Source: Bacillus bingmayongensis (GTDB taxonomy: Bacteria > Bacillota > Bacilli > Bacillales > Bacillaceae_G). Taken from it: DNA of 64,000 bases. Made by a program: the position numbers and the translations under genes. Positions 3,665 through 60,013 of the stretch are shown piece after piece. The DNA lies in the NCBI RefSeq assembly GCF_000299035.1, contig NZ_AKCS01000013.1, positions 1 to 64,000 on the forward strand, given 5' to 3'. The notes beneath the pieces were generated by a model. The model was given only the letters and a program-made list of their open reading frames with translations, was not told where the DNA came from and did not search any database. How positions within the stretch are numbered: position 1 is the stretch's first letter; every line of letters starts with the position of its first letter.

Positions 3665-4050
3665 TTATATTGTGTAAGTAAAAATGTCTAGTATGATCTT
3701 TAATCGGTGAAACTAAATAAGATAGTAGGATAAAAAGTATACACGGTAAATATATATTGATTGCAAGAACGCTTGTTTGGTAATATATCTATATTGTTCT
3801 AATTAAAATTGGATTGTTACATTAATTTTTTAGAAAATGCTGTAGAAGAAATGTTAGGTAATAACTTACTAAAACTGGAAATGCATCAAGTGATATAATA
3901 GAAGAAGGCTGAATAGAATCTTATCATTTTTTCTGCTAGAATATGTATTTTATAGCTTACAACATTGTAAGGTAAGTGTAAGAGAAATCAATTGGAGATT
4001 GCATTAAGAAACAGTATTCTTAATGTAAGGATTATATATGCTGTAAGGAA
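3665..4050. other. Intergenic region upstream of mtgA
   Basis: About 390 AT-rich bases with no ORF that I would support. The one notable element is CTTACAACATTGTAAG at 3956-3971, an inverted repeat of CTTACA/TGTAAG with a 4-base centre about 95 bases before the mtgA start. It resembles the element upstream of the 27-residue peptide genes. Confidence 0.5.
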
Positions 4051-4064
4051 AAGAGGTGTGCACG

Positions 4065-4841
4065 ATGAAAGAACGAGTACTGTCTAGGGTTAACTATCAT
4101 CAAAAGGTTTCATTCAATCCAATTACGAAGTTTCTTTATAAAGCCATTATTTTATTATTACTACTTAGTTGTACATTATTATTGATTGGAAATGTAATGA
4201 TTGAGCGAAGTGATATTAGCAAGCTGCATGTACCCGCTAAATTAGAGGTACCAGAACCTTTGGCTCACGCGTTTATTGCGACAGAAGATAAAAGGTTTTA
4301 TCATCATAACGGTCTAGACTATATAGCAATTGTTCGAGCTTCTATTGAAAATATAAAAGCTGGTGGTGTTGTACAGGGTGGAAGTACAATTACACAGCAG
4401 CTTTCCAAAAATGCTTTTTTATCTAATGAACGTACATTTTCTCGTAAATGGAAAGAGATTTTTTATACAAAAAAAATTGAGCGTACATTTACTAAAGATG
4501 AGATTTTAAAATTATATGTGAGCAATATTTATTATGGAGAAGGTGCATGGGGGATTGAAAAAGCATCCCAGCTATACTTTGGTAAAAAGGTAAATCAATT
4601 AACATTAAGTGAAAGTGCAATGATGGCTGCTATTGTGAAAGCCCCTGCTTATTATTCTCCTGCCCAGAACTATGATAAAGCAGTAGAGAGACGAAATGTT
4701 GTTTTGAAATTAATGGAAAAAGAAGGGTATATTAGCCATGATGAATATGTGCAAGCGATTAGTGAAAAATTAGTAATTCGTCATGATATTCCAACTCAGC
4801 ATTCGTTGCAAAAAATAGCGCGTGAAAAAGCGGTAAGCTAA
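4065..4841 (+). CDS. mtgA: Monofunctional peptidoglycan glycosyltransferase (GT51)
   Basis: This 258-residue membrane-anchored enzyme polymerises lipid II into glycan strands. It has a cytosolic basic N-terminus, one transmembrane segment at about residues 25-45 (AIILLLLLSCTLLLIGNVMI), and an extracellular GT51 domain. The catalytic motif is ATEDKRFYHHNGLD and the second conserved block is GGSTITQQLSKNAFL. There is no transpeptidase domain, so it is the monofunctional type and not a class A PBP. The ATG at 4065 follows AAGAGG at good spacing, so I reject the GTG at 4056. It is monocistronic with its own terminator. Confidence 0.92.
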   Translation: MKERVLSRVNYHQKVSFNPITKFLYKAIILLLLLSCTLLLIGNVMIERSDISKLHVPAKLEVPEPLAHAFIATEDKRFYHHNGLDYIAIVRASIENIKAGGVVQGGSTITQQLSKNAFLSNERTFSRKWKEIFYTKKIERTFTKDEILKLYVSNIYYGEGAWGIEKASQLYFGKKVNQLTLSESAMMAAIVKAPAYYSPAQNYDKAVERRNVVLKLMEKEGYISHDEYVQAISEKLVIRHDIPTQHSLQKIAREKAVS

Positions 4842-12929: not shown

Positions 12930-13419
12930 TAGTTTACTTTTCCACCTTATGTAATAACGAATTCAGGTTTTACTTGTGAACCAAATTCTTCTTTTTAATG
13001 TGTATCGTATAGCTTATGAAGATAGTTTTCTTTTCCTAAATTTTTAAGCTCCTTATTGATCCAATCATGCATTTCTTTATTTCCTTTTTTCACTGCGATT
13101 GCAATTTGTTCTTCGCCACCTAGCTTATCTGCGCCTACTAGTTCACCACGATTTTTTATCCCGCTAACGGGCAGTAAGACCCCCACCTCAAAATTCAGCA
13201 AGAGTAAAGAAGTTAGGTGGGGGATCAACTGACCGTAAAAGCCCGATTGGTGCGGGCTGATAATCAGTGTGGGATGAAGCCCCCCACACTGACTAAAGTT
13301 TCACTTTATTTGTTCGATTTTTTCGCTCGCCTTTGATGATGCTTTTTCATTTTTTTATCGCTAGAACCACATGCCGCTAATAGAACTGAAAGTAATCCTA
13401 TAATAACGACTTTTTTATA
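12929..13419 (-). pseudogene. Decayed amino-acid ABC transporter substrate-binding lipoprotein
   Basis: On the minus strand the 5' part encodes a lipoprotein signal (KKVVIIGLLSVLLAACGSSD), but the start codon is lost (TAT in place of ATG after AAAGGAAG). The reading then runs into a bcr1 repeat and resumes as GELVGADKLGGEEQIAIAVK and onward, the C-terminal end of a polar amino-acid binding protein. About 160 codons of the middle are missing. In-frame stops follow DTH and VIT near the 3' end, before GGKVN at 12929. The lesions are thus start loss, internal deletion, insertion and nonsense changes. Confidence 0.85.
13155..13309 (+). repeat. bcr1 repeat (155 bp) inside the pseudogene
   Basis: This is a full-length B. 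cereus group bcr1-like element bounded by TTTAT at 13155-13159 and 13305-13309. The 5' hairpin is CCCGCTAACGGG. Next is the ACCCCCACCTC...GAGGTGGGGG-type stem, then the AAAAGCCCGATTGGTGCGGGC stem and the CAGTGTGGG...CCCACACTG stem. It has no coding capacity and looks like a structured RNA or DNA repeat. Confidence 0.9.
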
Positions 13420-29741: not shown

Positions 29742-29900
29742 TTTATCCCGCTATTTGCGCGCAGTAAGACCCCCCACCTCAAGATTCAGAGAGAAACGAG
29801 GAAGATAGGTGGGGGACAACTGCCCGTAAAAGCCCGATTCGTGAGGGCTAACCATCAGTGGGGGATGAAGAGAACCCCACTGATGGAAGTTTCGCTTTAT
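29742..29900 (+). repeat. bcr1 repeat (159 bp)
   Basis: This is a full-length element with TTTAT at 29742-29746 and 29896-29900. It has the CCCGCTATTTGCGCGC 5' hairpin, the ACCCCCCACCTC/GGTGGGGG stem, the AAAGCCCGATTCGTGAGGGCT stem and the ATCAGTGGGG/CCCCACTGAT stem. Confidence 0.9.
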
Positions 29901-33259: not shown

Positions 33260-34636
33260 ATGAGATTTTGGAAAAAAGGTGCTGCTATTATAATGGCAGC
33301 AACGATGGCCTTATCAGCTGCAGCTTGTTCAAGTAGTAAAACAGAGGGGAAATCTGAAGCAAAGGAAAAAGTAGCTCCCGTAGAAAAGAATGGGGAAAAA
33401 ACAGTCATTCGCTTTTGGCATGCAATGGGTGGAAAAACGCAAGGTGTGTTAGATGGAATTGTTGCAGACTATAATAAGTCACAAAATAAATATGAGGTAA
33501 AAGCTGAATTTCAAGGTTCCTATGAAGAATCTTTAACGAAGTTTAAAAATATAAAAGCTTCAAAAGAATCACCAGCTCTCGTTCAATCTAGCGAAATTAC
33601 AACGAAATATATGATTGATAGTAAAAAGATTACACCGATTGATAGCTGGATTAAAAAAGATAAATATGATACATCGAAATTAGAAAAAGCGATTACGAAC
33701 TATTATTCAATTGATGGGAAAATGTATCCAATGCCATTTAATTCATCTACACCAGTATTAATTTATAATAAAGATGCCTTTACAAAAGCGGGACTCGATC
33801 CAGAAAAAGCACCGAAAACTTACGCTGAATTAAAAGAAGCAGCAAAAAAATTAACTGTTAAAGAAGGCGAAAGCGTAAAACAGTACGGTTTTTCAATGTT
33901 AAATTACGGATGGTTCTTTGAAGAGCTATTGGCAACACAAGGTGGTTTATATGTTGATAAAGAAAATGGACGTAAAGGTGCGGCGACAAAAGCCGTATTT
34001 AATGGAAAAGAAGGACAAAAAGTATTTGGTTTATTAGATGAACTGAATAAAGCTGGTACATTAGGAAAGTATGGAGCAAGTTGGGATGATGTTCGTGCTG
34101 CTTTCCAATCTGGACAAGTTGCAATGTACTTAGATTCTTCAGCTGGTGTTAGGGATGTAATTGATTCCTCTAAATTCAATGTAGGTGTAGCGTATATTCC
34201 ATATCCAGAGGATGTAAAACAAAACGGTGTTGTTATTGGCGGGGCATCATTATGGATGACGAATATGGTTGCAGAAGAAACACAACAGGGTGCTTGGGAC
34301 TTTATGAAATATTTAACAAAACCAGATGTGCAAGCAAAATGGCATACAGAAACGGGTTATTTCTCTATTAACCCAGACGCATATAATGAACCTTTAGTAA
34401 AACAACAATATGAAAAATATCCACAGTTAAAAGTAACAGTAGAACAGTTACAAGCAACAAAACCATCCGTTGCAACACAAGGGGCACTTATTAGTGTATT
34501 CCCTGAATCTCGCGATGCGGTTGTAAAAGCACTAGAAGCAATGTATGACGGGAAAAGTAGTAAAGAAGCATTAGATGAAGCAGCAAAAACAACAGATCGG
34601 GCAATTAGTATTTCGAATCGTACAAGTCAAAAATAA
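33260..34636 (+). CDS. ugpB: Glycerol-3-phosphate-binding lipoprotein UgpB
   Basis: This 458-residue extracellular solute-binding protein (family 1) is tethered as a lipoprotein. The signal has lipobox LSAAAC with Cys23, then a Lys/Glu linker. The mature domain begins VIRFWHAMGGKTQGVLDGI, typical of UgpB, and GASLWMTNMV lies near residue 330. It delivers substrate to UgpAE. It is the last gene of the ugpCAEB operon, with AAAGGTGGG upstream. Confidence 0.92.
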   Translation: MRFWKKGAAIIMAATMALSAAACSSSKTEGKSEAKEKVAPVEKNGEKTVIRFWHAMGGKTQGVLDGIVADYNKSQNKYEVKAEFQGSYEESLTKFKNIKASKESPALVQSSEITTKYMIDSKKITPIDSWIKKDKYDTSKLEKAITNYYSIDGKMYPMPFNSSTPVLIYNKDAFTKAGLDPEKAPKTYAELKEAAKKLTVKEGESVKQYGFSMLNYGWFFEELLATQGGLYVDKENGRKGAATKAVFNGKEGQKVFGLLDELNKAGTLGKYGASWDDVRAAFQSGQVAMYLDSSAGVRDVIDSSKFNVGVAYIPYPEDVKQNGVVIGGASLWMTNMVAEETQQGAWDFMKYLTKPDVQAKWHTETGYFSINPDAYNEPLVKQQYEKYPQLKVTVEQLQATKPSVATQGALISVFPESRDAVVKALEAMYDGKSSKEALDEAAKTTDRAISISNRTSQK

Positions 34637-34637
34637 A

Positions 34638-34677
34638 AGAATGGCGTATCTGTAAAAAGATACGCCATTCTTTTATT
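34638..34677 (+). terminator. Terminator of the ugp operon
   Basis: The stem AAAGAATGGCGTATCT / AGATACGCCATTCTTT has a short A-rich loop. Confidence 0.92.
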
Positions 34678-34765
34678 TGTTGCCTCATTTCTTACTTTAA
34701 GTATAGTGGGCAGCAAGTCTCGTAACTATCGAATTAGGTGATGTGAGGATTACAGTGGTGTAAGA
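34678..34765 (-). repeat. Decayed copy of the 27-residue-peptide cassette (promoter end only)
   Basis: On the minus strand the operator-like CTTACACCACTGTAAT (34749-34764), the CGATAGTTACGA block, the -10 TATACT and the AAGAAATGAGGCAACAAA leader match the intact cassettes. The peptide ORF itself is gone, and the sequence runs into the ugp terminator. Confidence 0.65.
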
Positions 34766-34796
34766 TATAAATTCTCCGTTTTGAAACTTCTTTTTT

Positions 34797-34832
34797 TAAG
34801 GGAAAGTTAAGAAATAGATTTCATAATAAATT
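34797..34832 (+). promoter_or_regulatory. Candidate operator/promoter of the 35269 two-component operon
   Basis: TTAAGGGAAAGTTAAGAAAT followed by TTTCATAATA also occurs at 37242-37273 before the repeat-protein gene. Two copies, one ahead of the regulator genes and one directly after them, suggest that the response regulator binds here. CATAAT could be the -10. Confidence 0.5.
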
Positions 34833-34874
34833 CTATATGCAGAATATTAGATAATAAAATGAGTGAGAAAATTA

Positions 34875-35000
34875 TTTATCCCACTATTGGTGGGCAGTAA
34901 TACCCCCACCTCAAAATTCGGCGAAAGCAAAGAAGTTAGGTGAGGGATAATAATCAGTGGGAGATGAAGAACTCCTCCACTGATTAAAGTTTCATTTTAT
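34875..35000 (+). repeat. bcr1 repeat, internally shortened (126 bp)
   Basis: It has TTTAT at both ends, the CCCACTATTGGTGGGC 5' hairpin and the ACCCCCACCTC/GTGAGGG stem. The AAAAGCCCGATTGG stem is deleted, while the CAGTGGGAGATGAAGAACTCCTCCACTG stem remains. Confidence 0.85.
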
Positions 35001-35268: not shown

Positions 35269-35940
35269 ATGCGCTTATTAGTTGTAGAAGATAATGCACC
35301 CTTATTAGAATCAATTACACAAATTTTATGTGATGAGTTCGAAGTTGATACAGCAATGAATGGAGAAGATGGCTTGTTTTTGGCATTACAAAATATTTAT
35401 GATGTAATACTTCTGGATGTGATGTTACCGGCGCTAGATGGTTTTGAGGTAATTCAAAAAATACGGAATGAAAAAATTGAAACACCTGTCCTATTTTTGA
35501 CTGCTAAAGATTCTTTAGAGGACCGTGTGAAAGGGTTAGATTTCGGAGGGGATGATTACTTAATAAAGCCATTTCAAGCTCCGGAGCTGCAAGCAAGAAT
35601 TCGAGCTTTATTACGAAGAAGTGGTAATTTAACAACAAAGCAAACCGTTAGCTATCGTGGAATCGAGTTGTTCGGAAAGGAAAAGGATATTCAAGTTGAT
35701 GGAGAAGCAATTAAATTAACATTAAAGCAATATGAACTTTTAGAATATCTCATTCAAAATAGTGGAAAGATTTTAATGCGTGAACAAATCTTTGATCGTG
35801 TTTGGGGATTTGATTCAGATACAACGGTAGCGATTGTTGAAGTGTATGTTCATCATTTGCGAAAAAAATTAGAGCCATTTGGTTATCAAAAAGATATTCA
35901 AACCGTTCGCGGGATTGGCTATATGTTAAAAGAACAATGA
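35269..35940 (+). CDS. OmpR-family response regulator
   Basis: This 223-residue regulator has a receiver with phospho-acceptor D50 (ILLDVMLPALDGFE), the switch region YLIKPF at about 101-106, and a C-terminal winged helix (about 128-223) ending RGIGYMLKEQ. It overlaps the kinase ORF. GAAAGGTGAGAAAGTGAT precedes the ATG. The stimulus is unknown. A shared element at 34797 and 37242 suggests that it controls its own operon and the secreted repeat protein and C39 protease genes after it. Confidence 0.92.
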   Translation: MRLLVVEDNAPLLESITQILCDEFEVDTAMNGEDGLFLALQNIYDVILLDVMLPALDGFEVIQKIRNEKIETPVLFLTAKDSLEDRVKGLDFGGDDYLIKPFQAPELQARIRALLRRSGNLTTKQTVSYRGIELFGKEKDIQVDGEAIKLTLKQYELLEYLIQNSGKILMREQIFDRVWGFDSDTTVAIVEVYVHHLRKKLEPFGYQKDIQTVRGIGYMLKEQ

Positions 35941-35951
35941 AGAGGGGAAGT

Positions 35952-37199
35952 ATGTTTCAAAAAACACGCATTCGCCTTACAATTTTAAATTCATTAGTGT
36001 TTATTATATTAATTGGAGTTCTAGGGAGTATTATCTATGGCTATACATATAATCGCATTTATAGTGGAGTAGATAATTCGCTAGAAATGTTTAAAGCAAA
36101 AGAGAAGAAAAATTCTCAGTCTAATCCAAAAGGGTCCGTTAGGGATATTCGGATTGGAGATCCAAGGATTACTGTACTGTTATGGCGTGGAAAAAAAGTA
36201 GCCCTAATAGATAAGAATCCTAAATTTGTTGATCCTGCTTTAGAAGAAAATCCTTTAGCGTTTTTCCCAGAAAAATTGGAGGATTTTCAGGATATTAAAA
36301 TAAAAGGGAAGAGTTTTAGAGCATTGGCTTTTCAGCGTAATACTGAACTTGGACAAATGACGGTTCAATTTGTACGCGATACAACTGCAGAAAGAGATAT
36401 GTTGCATACGTTATTGTTAATTCTTATAGTGGGGTGTAGTATAGGGAGTTTATGCGCAATAGGGATGGGGTTTTTCTTAGCTGGAAGAGCTCTTGTACCA
36501 ATTCATAATTCATGGGAAAAGCAGCAACAGTTTGTTTCTGATGCATCCCATGAATTAAGAACACCACTAGCAGTCATTCAATCTAAAACAGATGTACTAT
36601 TTCAATCTCCTTCCGCTACGATAGAAGAAAAAGCAATTGATATTTCTACAATTTCAAAGGAGTGCAGAAGGTTATCGAAGCTCGTTGCTAATTTATTATT
36701 ATTAGCTCGTTCCGATTCGAATCAAATTGAAATGGATAAAAAGAAGTTTGCATTAGATGAATTATTAACGGAAGTAGTAAATCCTTATACAGAAATTGCT
36801 GCATATCAAGAGAAAAAGATGACACTAGAAATTGAATCTAAAGTATCTTTTATTGGTGATAGAGAACGAATTCATCAAATGGTTGTGATTTTATTAGACA
36901 ATGCTATGAAATATACTGATGTTGGTGGAACGATTCAAGTAGCATGTATGCAAACAAGTAGTTCAATTATGATTCAGGTAAAAGACAATGGAATTGGAAT
37001 AAAAGAAGAGGAGATTCCAAAGTTATTTGATCGTTTTTATCAAGGAGATAAAGCAAGAACGAAATCAGAAGGTGCTGGATTAGGTCTTTCAATTGCTAGT
37101 TGGATTGTAGAAAAACATTATGGGAAAATAAAAGTCGAGAGTAAAATTAGTGAAGGCACTTGTTTCGAAGTGATTTTACCTAAAAATCAAAGAGTATAA
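35952..37199 (+). CDS. Sensor histidine kinase
   Basis: This protein has about 415 residues. The first transmembrane segment is at about 10-30, a short extracellular domain at about 31-150, the second transmembrane at about 152-175, and the H box is FVSDASHELRTPLAVIQS. The ATPase domain has LLDNAMKYTDVGGTI, DNGIGIKEEEIP and GAGLGLSIASWIV. There is no clear HAMP or PAS domain. I prefer the ATG at 35952 (AGAGGGGAAG before it). The ATG at 35937 overlapping the regulator stop is also possible and adds five residues. Confidence 0.9.
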   Translation: MFQKTRIRLTILNSLVFIILIGVLGSIIYGYTYNRIYSGVDNSLEMFKAKEKKNSQSNPKGSVRDIRIGDPRITVLLWRGKKVALIDKNPKFVDPALEENPLAFFPEKLEDFQDIKIKGKSFRALAFQRNTELGQMTVQFVRDTTAERDMLHTLLLILIVGCSIGSLCAIGMGFFLAGRALVPIHNSWEKQQQFVSDASHELRTPLAVIQSKTDVLFQSPSATIEEKAIDISTISKECRRLSKLVANLLLLARSDSNQIEMDKKKFALDELLTEVVNPYTEIAAYQEKKMTLEIESKVSFIGDRERIHQMVVILLDNAMKYTDVGGTIQVACMQTSSSIMIQVKDNGIGIKEEEIPKLFDRFYQGDKARTKSEGAGLGLSIASWIVEKHYGKIKVESKISEGTCFEVILPKNQRV

Positions 37200-37207
37200 A
37201 GAAATTA

Positions 37208-37244
37208 GAGGCGATCTTGTTTTTACAAGGTCGCCTTTTTTTAA
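37208..37244 (+). terminator. Terminator of the two-component operon
   Basis: The stem GGCGATCTTGT / ACAAGGTCGCC (one G-T) is followed by T7. Confidence 0.9.
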
Positions 37245-37273
37245 GGGAAAGTTAAGAAATGTTTTTCATAATA
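37242..37273 (+). promoter_or_regulatory. Second copy of the two-component operator/promoter element
   Basis: TTAAGGGAAAGTTAAGAAAT followed by TTTTTCATAATAG is nearly identical to 34797-34832. It sits between the kinase terminator and the repeat-protein gene, 200 bases before that gene. Confidence 0.55.
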
Positions 37274-37474
37274 GAGTGTACACAGAATCAGAAGGACAAA
37301 AGAGAGAAAAAAGTAATCATATTCATTCTTTTTAAGGATATCCAGATCGTTATATTCATGGTTGATTTTAATAGGAACCGAATTGAGCATATCTTTTACG
37401 ATAATGTGGGAAAAATTGAAGAGGAAGCGTCAGAAGGAAATTACAGTGTAAGAAATGTAAAGGGGAGATGAAAT

Positions 37475-39208: not shown

Positions 39209-39487
39209 GAAGAGATAAGGGATCAAAACAACGATGAAACCTTATCTCTTTTTATTGTCTTATACGATTCGTAATGAATTTACCTCGTTTCATCATTTGT
39301 TTAAATCCATTGCTACTTGTTTTCCATTTACAAAAACTTCTACTACTGCTATAACTACTTCCATCACTTTTTTCATCTCTCATCTCTCCTCGTTTGTTGT
39401 TTCATTTCTTATGTTTAGTATAAGGGAGAGAAGAAAATACAACTATCGAAGGAGATGACATAGAAATTACATTGTTGTAAGAATAAA
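39209..39487 (-). repeat. 27-residue-peptide cassette, copy 1
   Basis: About 279 bp, closely similar to 44725-44999 and more distantly to 51577-51905. On the minus strand it runs from the inverted repeat CTTACAACAATGTAAT (39466-39481) through the CGATAGTTGTAT block, -10 TATACT (39417-39422), a leader and the peptide ORF to a hairpin terminator (39209-39258, AAGAGATAAGG/CCTTATCTCTT). Confidence 0.8.
39293..39376 (-). CDS. 27-residue hydrophobic peptide, copy 1
   Basis: This short ORF begins MKKVMEVVIAVVEVFVNG and ends KQVAMDLNK. It is preceded on the minus strand by GAGGAGAGATGAGAG. Homologous ORFs of the same length lie at 44809-44892 and 51717-51800. Differences among them are mostly conservative (V/I/M, D/E, K/Q) and the frame is kept, which supports coding. 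Residues 2-18 could form an amphipathic helix (K2, K3, E6, E13 on one side). I do not recognise the family. A small membrane-active peptide, toxin or signal is possible; none is shown. Confidence 0.65.
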   Translation of the reverse strand: MKKVMEVVIAVVEVFVNGKQVAMDLNK

Positions 39488-39623
39488 AAGTGAATAGAAA
39501 ATTTTGTGAGAGAATGAATTAAGGTAGATGTCCTTATTTTGTGAAATTGTTGTATTCATAAAAAAGAATAAGTAAGATAGATTTCGCGTGTAGTAAAGTA
39601 GAAATAAGGGAGACAATAAAGGG

Positions 39624-44724: not shown

Positions 44725-44999
44725 AGGGAGATAAGGGATCAAAACAATGAGGAAACCTTATCTCTTTTTATGTGATTATACAATTCATAATGAATGTTCC
44801 TCGTTTCATTATTTGTTTAACTCCATTGCCACTTGCTTTCCATTTACAAAAACCTCTACTACTGCTGCAACTACTTCCATCACTTTTTTCATCTCTCATC
44901 TCTCCTTGTTTGTTGTTTCATTTCTTACTTTTAGTATAAGGGAGAGATGTAGATACAACTATCGAAGTAGGTGACATGAGAATTACATTGCTGTAAGGA
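44725..44999 (-). repeat. 27-residue-peptide cassette, copy 2
   Basis: About 275 bp, the closest relative of copy 1. The inverted repeat CTTACAGCAATGTAAT is at 44982-44997, 90 bases before the peptide start as in copy 1. The same CGATAGTTGTAT block, TATACT and leader follow. The terminator hairpin (GAGATAAGG/CCTTATCTC) lies at 44728-44771. Confidence 0.8.
44809..44892 (-). CDS. 27-residue hydrophobic peptide, copy 2
   Basis: It begins MKKVMEVVAAVVEVFVNG and ends KQVAMELNK. It differs from copy 1 by two residues (A for I, E for D) and several silent changes. The ribosome binding site AAGGAGAGATGAGAG precedes the ATG at 44892. Frame, length and ribosome binding site are conserved with the other copies. 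Function is unknown. Confidence 0.65.
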   Translation of the reverse strand: MKKVMEVVAAVVEVFVNGKQVAMELNK

Positions 45000-45004
45000 A
45001 GAAA

Positions 45005-48113: not shown

Positions 48114-48148
48114 AAAAAAATCCTCATATACTTGAGGATTTTTTTATT
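48114..48148. terminator. Bidirectional terminator
   Basis: The stem AAAAAAATCCTCA / TGAGGATTTTTTT with a short loop lies between the MocR gene and the convergent acetyltransferase gene. Confidence 0.92.
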
Positions 48149-48659
48149 ACTTTTCTTCATCTAAGAATAAAACCATATGCTCTTCATCCCAATATTGGCC
48201 GTTATATTTTAAAGAACGTTCTTGTACACCAAATGTTTTAAAGCCTAATGATTCGTAAAGCTTTTTCGCACCGTCATTTCCGACAACAACATCAAGCATA
48301 ATTTGTTCTACTTCTAATGTTTTGGCAAGTTCAATACATTCTTTAATAAGTGCTTTTCCAGCTCCAAGTCCGCGTGCTTTTGGAGATACATATACGGAAC
48401 CAATTTTCGCTTTATGCTCTTGCTTTACGTATGGTTTCGTTTCCAGGGTTGCAACCCCGATTAATTTTCCATCTTTAAATGCACCTAGTGTATAGTTTTC
48501 ATCTTGTGCTAACTTTTGTGCCTTATATTCAATCGGACATTCTTTATTAATAATATCTTCATAAGAAGAGCTGAAAGCCTCAGGGTTTTGTTTTAATCCT
48601 TCTACGCGAAGTTCTAAGTAAATTTCTGCCTCGTTTTTTGTTAATACATGGATATCCAA
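48147..48659 (-). CDS. GNAT-family N-acetyltransferase (copy 1)
   Basis: This 170-residue acetyl-CoA-dependent transferase has the GNAT core AKIGSVYVSPKARGLGAGKA (about 84-103; the P-loop-like Q/RxxGxG/A is ARGLGAG) and a late NDGAKKLYESLGFKTFGVQE. The substrate is unknown. It starts with TTG at 48659, preceded by GGAGGGTGATATAA. A close paralogue lies at 52303-52809, identical over long stretches (KIGSVYVSPKARGLGAG, YNGQYWDEEHMVLFL against HNGQYWDEEHMVLFL). The two flank the two-component system and peptide genes. Confidence 0.92.
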   Translation of the reverse strand: MDIHVLTKNEAEIYLELRVEGLKQNPEAFSSSYEDIINKECPIEYKAQKLAQDENYTLGAFKDGKLIGVATLETKPYVKQEHKAKIGSVYVSPKARGLGAGKALIKECIELAKTLEVEQIMLDVVVGNDGAKKLYESLGFKTFGVQERSLKYNGQYWDEEHMVLFLDEEK

Positions 48660-51487: not shown

Positions 51488-51609
51488 TTTTATAATCAAT
51501 ATTATCTCATAACTTGGAGGATAGAAAGTGAAAACTGTGGGATGAAAAAACGTATTGTATGTACGAGTTTTTTTGGGAAGGGATAAGGGATCGAAAAATG
51601 ATAGAAGCG

Positions 51610-51699
51610 CTATACAATAAACCAAGGAAGAATTGCTAATCCTGATGTTACAATTACTGTACCGCAAATTAAAAAGATAAGATGTTTGTGCTGTTTCAT
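51610..51699 (-). CDS. 29-residue membrane peptide downstream of cassette copy 3
   Basis: On the minus strand AGAGGGGCAATGGAT precedes ATG at 51699. The product MKQHKHLIFLICGTVIVTSG continues with a hydrophobic end (LAILPWFIV): a basic start, then one transmembrane segment. It lies 17 bases after the 27-residue ORF and is probably co-transcribed. Copies 1 and 2 of the cassette lack this gene. Function is unknown. Confidence 0.6.
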   Translation of the reverse strand: MKQHKHLIFLICGTVIVTSGLAILPWFIV

Positions 51700-51716
51700 A
51701 TCCATTGCCCCTCTAA

Positions 51717-51800
51717 TTATTGATTTAATTCCATTGCTACGGATTTTCCATTTACCATTACTTCGATAATTGCTCCAATTACTTCTATCATTTTTTTCAT
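51717..51800 (-). CDS. 27-residue hydrophobic peptide, copy 3
   Basis: It begins MKKMIEVIGAIIEVMVNG and ends KSVAMELNQ. It has the same length as copies 1 and 2, with conservative changes (V/I, V/M, Q/S) at about a third of positions while the frame and pattern are kept. The ribosome binding site AAGGAGAGATAAGAG precedes the ATG. This is the most distant copy, and so the best evidence that the peptide sequence is under selection. Confidence 0.65.
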   Translation of the reverse strand: MKKMIEVIGAIIEVMVNGKSVAMELNQ

Positions 51801-51905
51801 CTCTTATCTCTCCTTGTTGTGATTTCGTACTTTTAGTATAGCGAAGAGGAAGGAATAGAACCATTCAATAAGATGACATGGACATTACATTGTTGTAAGA
51901 AAAAA

Positions 51906-51940: not shown

Positions 51941-52293
51941 TATATAAATATATTTTGATTTTCCAACATATAAGTCGCTGCTATAAAGTGAAGGCTAATA
52001 ATCAGTGTGGGGTTTCTTCATCCCCCACTGATTATTAGCCTTCACCAATCGGGCTTTTACGGGCAGTTGATTCCCCACCTAACTTTTTGCTCTTTCTGAA
52101 TTTTGAGGTGGGGGTCTTACTGCCCGCAAATAGCGGGATAAAGAACAAAAGGTGATTTGCTCTCGTTTCCTCTCTTTGTTGTTACTCGGCATGGGGCAGG
52201 AAGAGGATCTGACCGTTTCCATGCATGGGCGGATGCTCTCTTCCATCTAAAAAGACAGGTTTTATGTCGGTTTTTCAATTTGTATTTCTATAT
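51941..52293 (+). repeat. MITE-like repeat, copy B, split by bcr1
   Basis: The outer parts 51941-51987 and 52138-52293 together give 193 bp once the bcr1 and one ATAAA are removed. Ends are TATATAAATATATTTTGATT and TTTTTCAATTTGTATTTCTA, an imperfect inverted repeat. It is closely similar to copy C (59817-60013): GCATGGGGCAGGAAGAGGAT against GCATAGGGCAGGAAAAGGAT. Confidence 0.8.
51983..52142 (-). repeat. bcr1 repeat (160 bp) nested in the MITE-like repeat
   Basis: This is a full-length element in minus orientation, bounded by ATAAA (TTTAT on its own strand) at 51983-51987 and 52138-52142. Host sequence GCTGCT-ATAAA on the left and ATAAA-GAACAAAAGG on the right join to the uninterrupted GCTATAAAGAACAAAAGG of copy C. 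Confidence 0.92.
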
Positions 52294-52302
52294 GCTGTAT
52301 GA

Positions 52303-52809
52303 TTAGTCATTTAAAAATAAAACCATATGTTCCTCATCCCAATACTGTCCATTGTGTTTTAAGGAACGTTCTTGTACGCCATATGTTTGAAAGCCAAGTG
52401 ACTCGTACAGTTTTTTTGCAGTTGCATTTCCAACGACAACATCAAGCATGAGTTGTTCTACATGTAATTTATGAGCATTTTCAATAATGGCTTTTATTAA
52501 TGCACGTCCAGCCCCAAGACCACGAGCTTTTGGAGAGACGTAAACAGAGCCGATTTTTGCTTTATGTTCTTGTTTAATAAATGGTTTTGTTTCTAAAGTC
52601 GCGAGTCCGATCAAATCGTTATCTTTAAAGACACCAAGGGTATACTTATCAGGGTTAGATAAACGTTTTGCCATTGCAGCAACAGGATCCTCATGTTTTA
52701 GTACATCTTCATAAGAAGAACTAAAGGCTTCTGGATTTTGTGTTAATCCTTCCATACAAACTTTTAAATAAATTTTGGCATCCTCTTTTGTTAATAAACG
52801 AATTTCCAT
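52303..52809 (-). CDS. GNAT-family N-acetyltransferase (copy 2)
   Basis: This 168-residue paralogue of the 48147-48659 protein shares the acetyl-CoA loop AKIGSVYVSPKARGLGAGRA and the C-terminal LKHNGQYWDEEHMVLFL. It differs mostly in the N-terminal third (MEIRLLTKEDAKIYLKVCME against MDIHVLTKNEAEIYLELRVE) and around 60-75. It has an ATG start with GAGGAGGTTACAGCT upstream. It is probably a tandem duplication later separated by 3.6 kb. The substrate is unknown. Confidence 0.92.
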   Translation of the reverse strand: MEIRLLTKEDAKIYLKVCMEGLTQNPEAFSSSYEDVLKHEDPVAAMAKRLSNPDKYTLGVFKDNDLIGLATLETKPFIKQEHKAKIGSVYVSPKARGLGAGRALIKAIIENAHKLHVEQLMLDVVVGNATAKKLYESLGFQTYGVQERSLKHNGQYWDEEHMVLFLND

Positions 52810-59816: not shown

Positions 59817-60013
59817 TATATAAGTACAAATTGAAAAAACTGATATAAAATCTAATCTTTAGGTGGGAGAGAGCATCCGGCCATGCATAGAAGCGGTCAG
59901 ATCCTTTTCCTGCCCTATGCCAAGTTAAAACAAAGAGAGAAAACGAGTGCAGGTCCCCTTTTGTTCTTTATAGCAGCGACTTATATGCCTGCAAATCAAA
60001 ATGGATTTATATA
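59817..60013 (-). repeat. MITE-like repeat, copy C (197 bp), uninterrupted
   Basis: Reverse orientation. Ends are TATATAAGTACAAATTG and its near complement, TTTATATA at 60006-60013. It preserves the empty bcr1 target (TTTAT at 59967-59971) used in copy B. No coding capacity. Confidence 0.8.

What the first reader, a model, noticed from the sequence alone, without database searches (positions are those of the whole stretch)
39209..39487. A dispersed cassette encoding an unrecognised 27-residue peptide (copy 1 of three)
Seen: three cassettes (39209-39487, 44725-44999, 51577-51905) carry a minus-strand 84-nt ORF with matching length, start, ribosome binding site and -10 box. Peptides share MKK-(V/M)-(M/I)-EV, a hydrophobic middle, VNGK and VAMxLN. 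Changes are conservative, as expected for a protein under selection. Inference: a family of small membrane-active peptides (toxin, signal or regulator) spread as a mobile or duplicated cassette next to operon ends. Such ORFs are below the usual gene-calling limit, so the family may be undescribed.
Basis: partly seen in the sequence, partly recalled or inferred. Interest (0 to 1): 0.78.

Follow-up and report, generated by a model that had tools for sequence, protein, structure and literature searches.

The report
Repeated cassettes encoding a tiny peptide
Three dispersed copies of a short gene unit in a Bacillus-like genome encode a conserved 27-residue peptide of no known family, behind a promoter that resembles those switched on by cell-wall-antibiotic sensors; it is probably a small overlooked envelope-stress peptide, but its activity is untested.

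Summary
Three minus-strand 84-nt ORFs (39293-39376, 44809-44892, 51717-51800) encode 27-aa peptides, 63-93% identical. Two frames are open in all three copies, but only this one shows changes more conservative than chance. The peptides hit nothing in Pfam, NCBIfam or PHROGs and nothing convincing in PDB.

Each copy begins with TTACA-N4-TGTAA, the published consensus for BceR-type response regulators, centred exactly 51 nt before a -10 box TATACT with no good -35. A fourth copy (34687-34770) keeps this promoter but has no ORF. The window's only other exact box, at 3957, has the same spacing and precedes a peptidoglycan transglycosylase gene.

Best reading: an envelope-stress-induced gene for an amphipathic, probably membrane-associated peptide. 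The ribosome-binding site can pair with the transcript's 3' end, clearly in two copies, weakly in the third.

Mobility is not supported. No related genome could be searched, and the unit might already be listed among the B. cereus bcr repeats. Regulator, induction and activity are inferred.

The parts
39293..39376 (-). 27-aa peptide ORF, copy 1
44809..44892 (-). 27-aa peptide ORF, copy 2
51717..51800 (-). 27-aa peptide ORF, copy 3
39467..39480 (-). TTACAACAATGTAA box, copy 1
44983..44996 (-). TTACAGCAATGTAA box, copy 2
51885..51898 (-). TTACAACAATGTAA box, copy 3
39417..39422 (-). -10 box TATACT, copy 1
44933..44938 (-). -10 box TATACT, copy 2
51835..51840 (-). -10 box TATACT, copy 3
34687..34770 (-). 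fourth copy: box, promoter and first leader bases only, followed by a strong hairpin terminator (34632-34677) and no peptide ORF
39212..39248. terminator-like hairpin of copy 1 (loop too long for the limit of 8, which did not flag it; T-rich after it on both strands); its 3' arm on the minus strand is complementary to the ribosome-binding site
   Evidence: (z -2.9)
44728..44764 (.). terminator-like hairpin of copy 2, same build; 3' arm complementary to the ribosome-binding site
   Evidence: (z -1.6, weak)
51610..51705 (-). second small ORF in copy 3 (31 aa, hydrophobic, GAGGGG upstream), absent from copies 1 and 2
3957..4020 (+). same promoter build (TTACAACATTGTAA, 51 nt from box centre to TATTCT) upstream of the 4056-4841 gene
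4056..4841 (+). peptidoglycan transglycosylase gene (PF00912), putative co-regulated gene

Best explanation
Each cassette is a small gene for a 27-residue peptide induced by cell-envelope stress. An OmpR-type response regulator of the Bce/Psd kind, encoded elsewhere, binds TTACA-N4-TGTAA about 63 nt upstream of the start point and recruits RNA polymerase to a -10 box (TATACT) that lacks a good -35. The short transcript is translated from a strong ribosome-binding site; its 3' end, the 3' arm of the terminator hairpin in copies 1 and 2, can fold back onto that site and limit translation. The peptide is probably an amphipathic helix that lies on the inner face of the membrane and modulates the envelope response. 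Shown here: ORF conservation and coding selection, box, spacing, ORF-less fourth copy, predicted pairing. Inferred: the regulator, induction, start point, membrane location and the effect of the peptide.
For: Coding: conservative-change test P 5e-5 (copy 2 to 3), 8.5e-4 (1 to 3), 0.05 (1 to 2). In 18 pair-by-frame comparisons the proposed frame gave 0, 0 and 0.02; the other 15 gave 0.026 to 0.87. dN/dS 0.22, 0.67, 0.21. Promoter: each of the 5 exact boxes in the window has TATNNT at exactly 51 nt in one orientation; 200 shuffles gave on average 0.19 boxes (maximum 2) and 0.005 boxes with that -10. The box fits TNACA-N4-TGTAA, the consensus for regulators of bceAB-type genes (passage of PMC9020739). 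The 3957 site, and no other place in the window, fits the L. paracasei ApsR/PsdR consensus AnnTTACnAnnnnGTnAG without mismatch (passage of PMC10858260) and precedes a peptidoglycan transglycosylase gene. Best -35 hexamer in copies 1-3: 2 of 6. Helical moment against composition shuffles: P 0.030, 0.019, 0.052. Ribosome-binding-site pairing with the 3' end: z -5.0, -4.0, -1.55 in copies 1-3; 1 of 45 other genes reaches -2.5.
Against: No binding, transcript or peptide data. No BceS/BceAB-like gene was recognised among the 16 larger window proteins scanned in Pfam; the rest of the window was not scanned. The cassette promoters are homologous, so their shared spacing is one observation; the 3957 match alone has a chance of about 2% (TATNNT frequency), and that promoter has a fair -35 (TGGAGA, 4 of 6). 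The consensus asks for an AT-rich spacer, but the fourth copy has CCAC. Four unrelated places also fit the Aps/Psd consensus with one mismatch, so it is loose. Another OmpR regulator could read the box. Copy 3 pairing is weak: 4 of 45 other genes reach -17 kcal/mol, about its energy, and its 3' region tested was longer (150 against 95 nt). Copy 3 shows no clear terminator of its own (-2.0 kcal/mol). Glu6 and Glu13 sit in the hydrophobic stretch, and VNGK could equally form a beta-turn (recalled).
Confidence: 0.5

Rival explanations
1. The cassettes are copies of an already catalogued B. cereus-group DNA repeat (one of bcr4-bcr18); the repeat itself, perhaps as a regulatory RNA or 3'-end element, is the functional unit and the ORF is incidental.
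For: [quoted passage not shown] Copies 1 and 2 are alike over 277 nt at 88%. The fourth copy has the promoter but no ORF.
Against: The changes are conservative only in the proposed frame, and copy 3 keeps the ORF while its 3' part differs. The bcr consensus sequences could not be read (Kristoffersen 2011 not held), so this stays open; the two readings can also both be true.
Confidence: 0.2
2. Type I toxin: a stress-induced small membrane toxin whose mRNA hides its ribosome-binding site by 5'-3' pairing, perhaps with an antisense antitoxin.
For: Short peptide with lysines after the start and an amphipathic hydrophobic stretch; ribosome-binding-site pairing in two of three copies; dispersed copies.
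Against: No antisense promoter or antitoxin RNA was recognised (promoter-like matches 73 against 74.6 expected, so uninformative); no typical transmembrane span; copy 3 pairing weak; no Rfam family at gathering score other than tRNA and 5S rRNA in the window.
Confidence: 0.15
3. Peptide signal, or a small accessory or immunity peptide for a Bce-type transporter.
For: Small size; Bce-type box.
Against: No signal peptide or cleavage motif by eye (no tool was run for this); no Bce-type transporter among the neighbours scanned.
Confidence: 0.1
4. Another frame is the true gene: the plus-strand ORFs of 74-75 aa (39234-39458, 44747-44974), or the other open minus frame (43-aa ORFs in copies 1 and 2 starting at 39383 and 44899; the 84-aa ORF 51610-51864 in copy 3).
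For: They are longer; the second minus frame has no internal stop in any of the three copies over the ORF region.
Against: The plus frame has a stop in copy 3 and its differences between copies 1 and 2 spread over codon positions 5, 9, 10. The second minus frame changes no more conservatively than chance (P 0.33, 0.17, 0.78), its start codon of copies 1 and 2 is absent in copy 3, and the 84-aa ORF there begins upstream of the -10 box.
Confidence: 0.04

Closest known systems
Target promoters of Bce/Psd/Aps-type response regulators (bceA; psdA, derA, mprF, dltA in L. paracasei)
   Same: TNACA-N4-TGTAA box; one window site fits the ApsR/PsdR consensus exactly and precedes a cell-wall gene
   Different: drives a 27-aa ORF in repeated units rather than a transporter or surface-charge gene; regulator not identified
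bcr1-bcr18 repeats of the B. cereus group
   Same: dispersed, intergenic, 100-400 bp, transcribed in part
   Different: ORF under selection here; consensus sequences not available for comparison
Type I toxin peptides of Firmicutes (recalled: TxpA, BsrG)
   Same: small hydrophobic peptide; ribosome-binding site pairs with the 3' end
   Different: no antisense RNA found; amphipathic rather than transmembrane; different promoter box
SpoVM-like peripheral amphipathic peptides (recalled)
   Same: about 26-27 aa, amphipathic, no evident signal peptide
   Different: not compared by a tool; several copies; different promoter

Membership tests
Bce-type regulon promoter | TNACA-N4-TGTAA box | tested here: met
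   consensus from a passage of PMC9020739. The AT-rich spacer is not met by the fourth copy (CCAC)
Bce-type regulon promoter | binding by a phosphorylated Bce-like regulator | not testable with these tools
   no binding data
Bce-type regulon promoter | neighbouring BceRS/BceAB genes | tested here: inconclusive
   none among 16 larger proteins scanned in Pfam; other window ORFs not scanned, and regulators can act at a distance
bcr repeat (bcr4-bcr18) | at least 75% identity over at least 50% of a bcr consensus (criterion in PMC6542083) | not testable with these tools
   consensus sequences not held
Mobile element or MITE | terminal inverted repeats and target-site duplication | tested here: not met
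   borders of copies 1-3 printed and read by eye
Type I toxin | ribosome-binding site occluded in the full-length mRNA | tested here: inconclusive
   z -5.0 and -4.0 in copies 1 and 2, -1.55 in copy 3
Type I toxin | antisense RNA antitoxin | tested here: inconclusive
   promoter scan no better than shuffles; no transcript data
Any Pfam, NCBIfam or PHROGs family | profile match | tested here: not met
   0 families for 3 of 3 peptides in each of the three libraries at E <= 1

The most novel reading that the evidence does not exclude
An undescribed family of envelope-stress-induced amphipathic peptides, present as repeated promoter-ORF units whose mRNAs hide their own ribosome-binding site: a toxin-like or membrane-guarding effector arm of a Bce-type antibiotic response, sharing its promoter build with a peptidoglycan transglycosylase gene.
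Probability: 0.2. Interest if true: 0.75.

Novelty: new variant of a known kind. Interest (0 to 1): 0.5.

Why it matters
Bce-type sensors are best known for switching on antibiotic transporters and surface-charge genes. If confirmed, short conserved peptides would be a further output of such a response, and the 51-nt box-to--10 rule would give a simple way to list the whole regulon, including genes too small for annotation.

Tried and rejected
Homologues: the genome contigs pattern scan for VNGKxVAMxLN (any codons) gave 2 stretches, both inside larger ORFs of 455 and 636 aa, taken as chance. It cannot be read as absence from the B. cereus group, because whether that group is held there is unknown. 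Viral contigs: 207 stretches matched peptide patterns, none confirmed; three DNA patterns gave 0. Plasmids: none for copy 1 or its peptide; copy 2 at E <= 10 gave 43 records, of which the 15 listed are Borrelia covering 17%, taken as chance. Phages: none. A 25-kb window piece matched 21 plasmid records, all Listeria, Staphylococcus or Priestia, and a bcr1-like stretch matched only a Pseudalkalibacillus plasmid; from this I infer that B. cereus-group plasmids are not in that copy. PDB: 9 sequences at E <= 10, best 0.044, short VNGK matches in beta-galactosidases, rejected. Rfam: nothing at gathering score except tRNA and 5S; copy 1 alone at the permissive cut-off gave 5 sub-threshold matches (3 miRNA, 2 sRNA families), taken as chance. 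A strand-type amphipathic model was not supported (moment at 170 degrees, P 0.72, 0.64, 0.35). The nearby CiaR/BAS0540-like pair was considered as regulator and set aside, because its published site is NTTAAG-N5-TTTAAG (PMC4938410, abstract and passages). WalR (recalled TGTWAH-N5-TGTWAH) fits copies 1-3 with one mismatch in the second half and stays possible. Structure prediction was not run: the peptide is under the 30-aa limit.

Papers: ten searches ran; in the capped listings I saw no description of this peptide, and the library lacks most subscription papers. Passages only were seen of PMC9020739, PMC3023708, PMC6542083, PMC3446304, PMC4877379, PMC3968067, PMC10858260 and PMC3231935. Not held: Kristoffersen 2011 and two further look-ups by DOI (recalled as Dintner 2011 and Fang 2017). 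de Been 2008 was seen only as a reference line.

Full report
What is there. Three minus-strand ORFs of 27 codons lie at 39293-39376, 44809-44892 and 51717-51800. Copies 1 and 2 are alike without gaps over 277 nt (39212-39488 and 44728-45004) with 32 differences; identity is 91.7% in the ORF with its stop codon, 97.1% in the 34 nt before it, 82.1% from there to the box and 87.7% in the 3' part. Copy 3 matches from the box to the stop codon and again at GATCCCTTATC near the end, with a different segment between them that holds a hydrophobic 31-aa ORF. A fourth copy, 34687-34770, has the promoter and first leader bases, then runs into a strong terminator hairpin (63-nt fold -28.7 kcal/mol, z -9.4) with no ORF.

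Is it coding? Nei-Gojobori dN/dS is 0.22 (1-2), 0.67 (1-3) and 0.21 (2-3); the counts are small. Placing the observed changes at random in the ORF gives a BLOSUM score at least as high in 5.0%, 0.085% and 0.005% of 20,000 trials for pairs 1-2, 1-3 and 2-3. Over six frames and three pairs (18 comparisons, 5000 trials each) the proposed frame gave 0.02, 0 and 0; the other 15 gave 0.026 to 0.87. Pairs that share a copy are not independent. Two minus frames have no internal stop in any copy; the second (MRDEKSDG... in copies 1 and 2) gives P 0.33 (2-3), 0.17 (1-3) and 0.78 (1-2) and lacks its start codon in copy 3.

The promoter. In all four copies the centre of TTACA-N4-TGTAA lies exactly 51 nt before TATACT. 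The window holds five exact boxes; the fifth, 3957-3970, has TATTCT at the same 51 nt on the plus strand and leads into 4056-4841, a PF00912 transglycosylase. Two hundred dinucleotide shuffles give 0.19 boxes on average (maximum 2) and 0.005 boxes with TATNNT at 51 nt (maximum 1). The four cassette promoters share ancestry, so the independent evidence is the fifth site: the sequence between box and -10 differs, the spacing does not; TATNNT at one given place in either orientation has a chance of about 1.9%. The box is the published consensus for regulators of bceAB-type genes (PMC9020739, passages), although that calls for an AT-rich spacer and the fourth copy has CCAC. The 3957 site fits the ApsR/PsdR consensus of L. 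paracasei with no mismatch; two cassette boxes (plus-strand reading) and four unrelated places fit with one (PMC10858260, passages). At spacers of 16-18 the best -35 hexamer matches TTGACA at 2 of 6 in copies 1-3, 3 of 6 in the fourth copy, and 4 of 6 before the transglycosylase gene. The cassettes thus look activator-dependent; the transglycosylase promoter may be less so.

The RNA. The 31 nt around the ribosome-binding site pair with the 3' region at -23.8, -21.1 and -17.1 kcal/mol in copies 1-3; shuffled 3' regions reach this in 0, 0.2 and 7% of 1000 trials. With other window genes treated alike, z is -5.0, -4.0 and -1.55, with 1 of 45 other genes at -2.5 or below and 4 of 45 at -17 kcal/mol or below (copy 3 with 150 instead of 95 nt of 3' sequence). 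In the predicted ensemble the ribosome-binding-site bases are mostly paired; without the 3' arm they are largely open in copies 1 and 3 and partly open in copy 2. The same arm forms the terminator-like hairpin in copies 1 (z -2.9) and 2 (z -1.6), so two structures compete. No compensatory pair change was seen by eye, and copy 3 shows no clear terminator. Self-limited translation is therefore a suggestion.

The peptide. It has no family in Pfam, NCBIfam or PHROGs at E <= 1 and only short matches in PDB. Net charge is +1, +1 and 0; the helical hydrophobic moment exceeds composition shuffles at P 0.030, 0.019 and 0.052, the strand-type moment does not. The likely form is a surface-lying amphipathic helix; Glu6 and Glu13 argue against a transmembrane span.

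Setting. Copy 1 lies after a C39-like peptidase gene and before a sCache/PAS sensor kinase gene on the other strand; copy 2 after a malic enzyme gene on the other strand and, with its box 8 nt from the stop codon, directly after a DUF4871 gene on its own strand; copy 3 upstream of an OmpR regulator/kinase pair on the same strand. The borders show no terminal repeats or target duplications by eye. Duplication by recombination would be enough to explain the copies; mobility is not shown.

Limits. No whole genome is held for the window, the one genome-contig scan met two unrelated proteins, and B. cereus-group plasmids seem not to be held. Distribution is untested. The cassette could be one of the bcr repeats of 100-400 bp (PMC6542083 and PMC3446304, passages), whose consensus sequences I could not read.

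Verdict. Function remains inference. Interest 0.5.

Noticed in passing
34790-34835 and 37235-37280: 46-nt repeat (87%) holding TTTAAG-N5-GTTAAG, close to the CiaR/BAS0540-type site NTTAAG-N5-TTTAAG (PMC4938410 passages). One lies upstream of the OmpR regulator/kinase pair 35269-37199, the other just after it and upstream of the 37475 ORF; perhaps autoregulation plus one target.
   Followed up: partly
13168-13309, 29811-29900, 34872-34986, 51999-52145: Repeats that I recall as bcr1-like (not compared with a bcr1 record). A 73% match to one stretch lies on a Pseudalkalibacillus hwajinpoensis plasmid (NZ_CP156675.1), although bcr repeats are described as B. cereus-group specific (PMC6542083 passages).
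   Followed up: partly
48147-48659 and 52303-52809: Two GNAT acetyltransferase genes on the minus strand, 77% identical over 300 nt, flank a regulator/kinase pair and copy 3.
   Followed up: no
51610-51705: A 31-aa hydrophobic ORF with its own ribosome-binding-site-like GAGGGG takes the place of the 3' part in copy 3; weak PHROGs matches, phrog_13188 (E 0.069, unknown) and phrog_3325, TreN-like membrane protein (E 0.16).
   Followed up: partly
52138-52251 and 59858-59971: A 114-nt inverted pair, 87% complementary, 7.6 kb apart.
   Followed up: no
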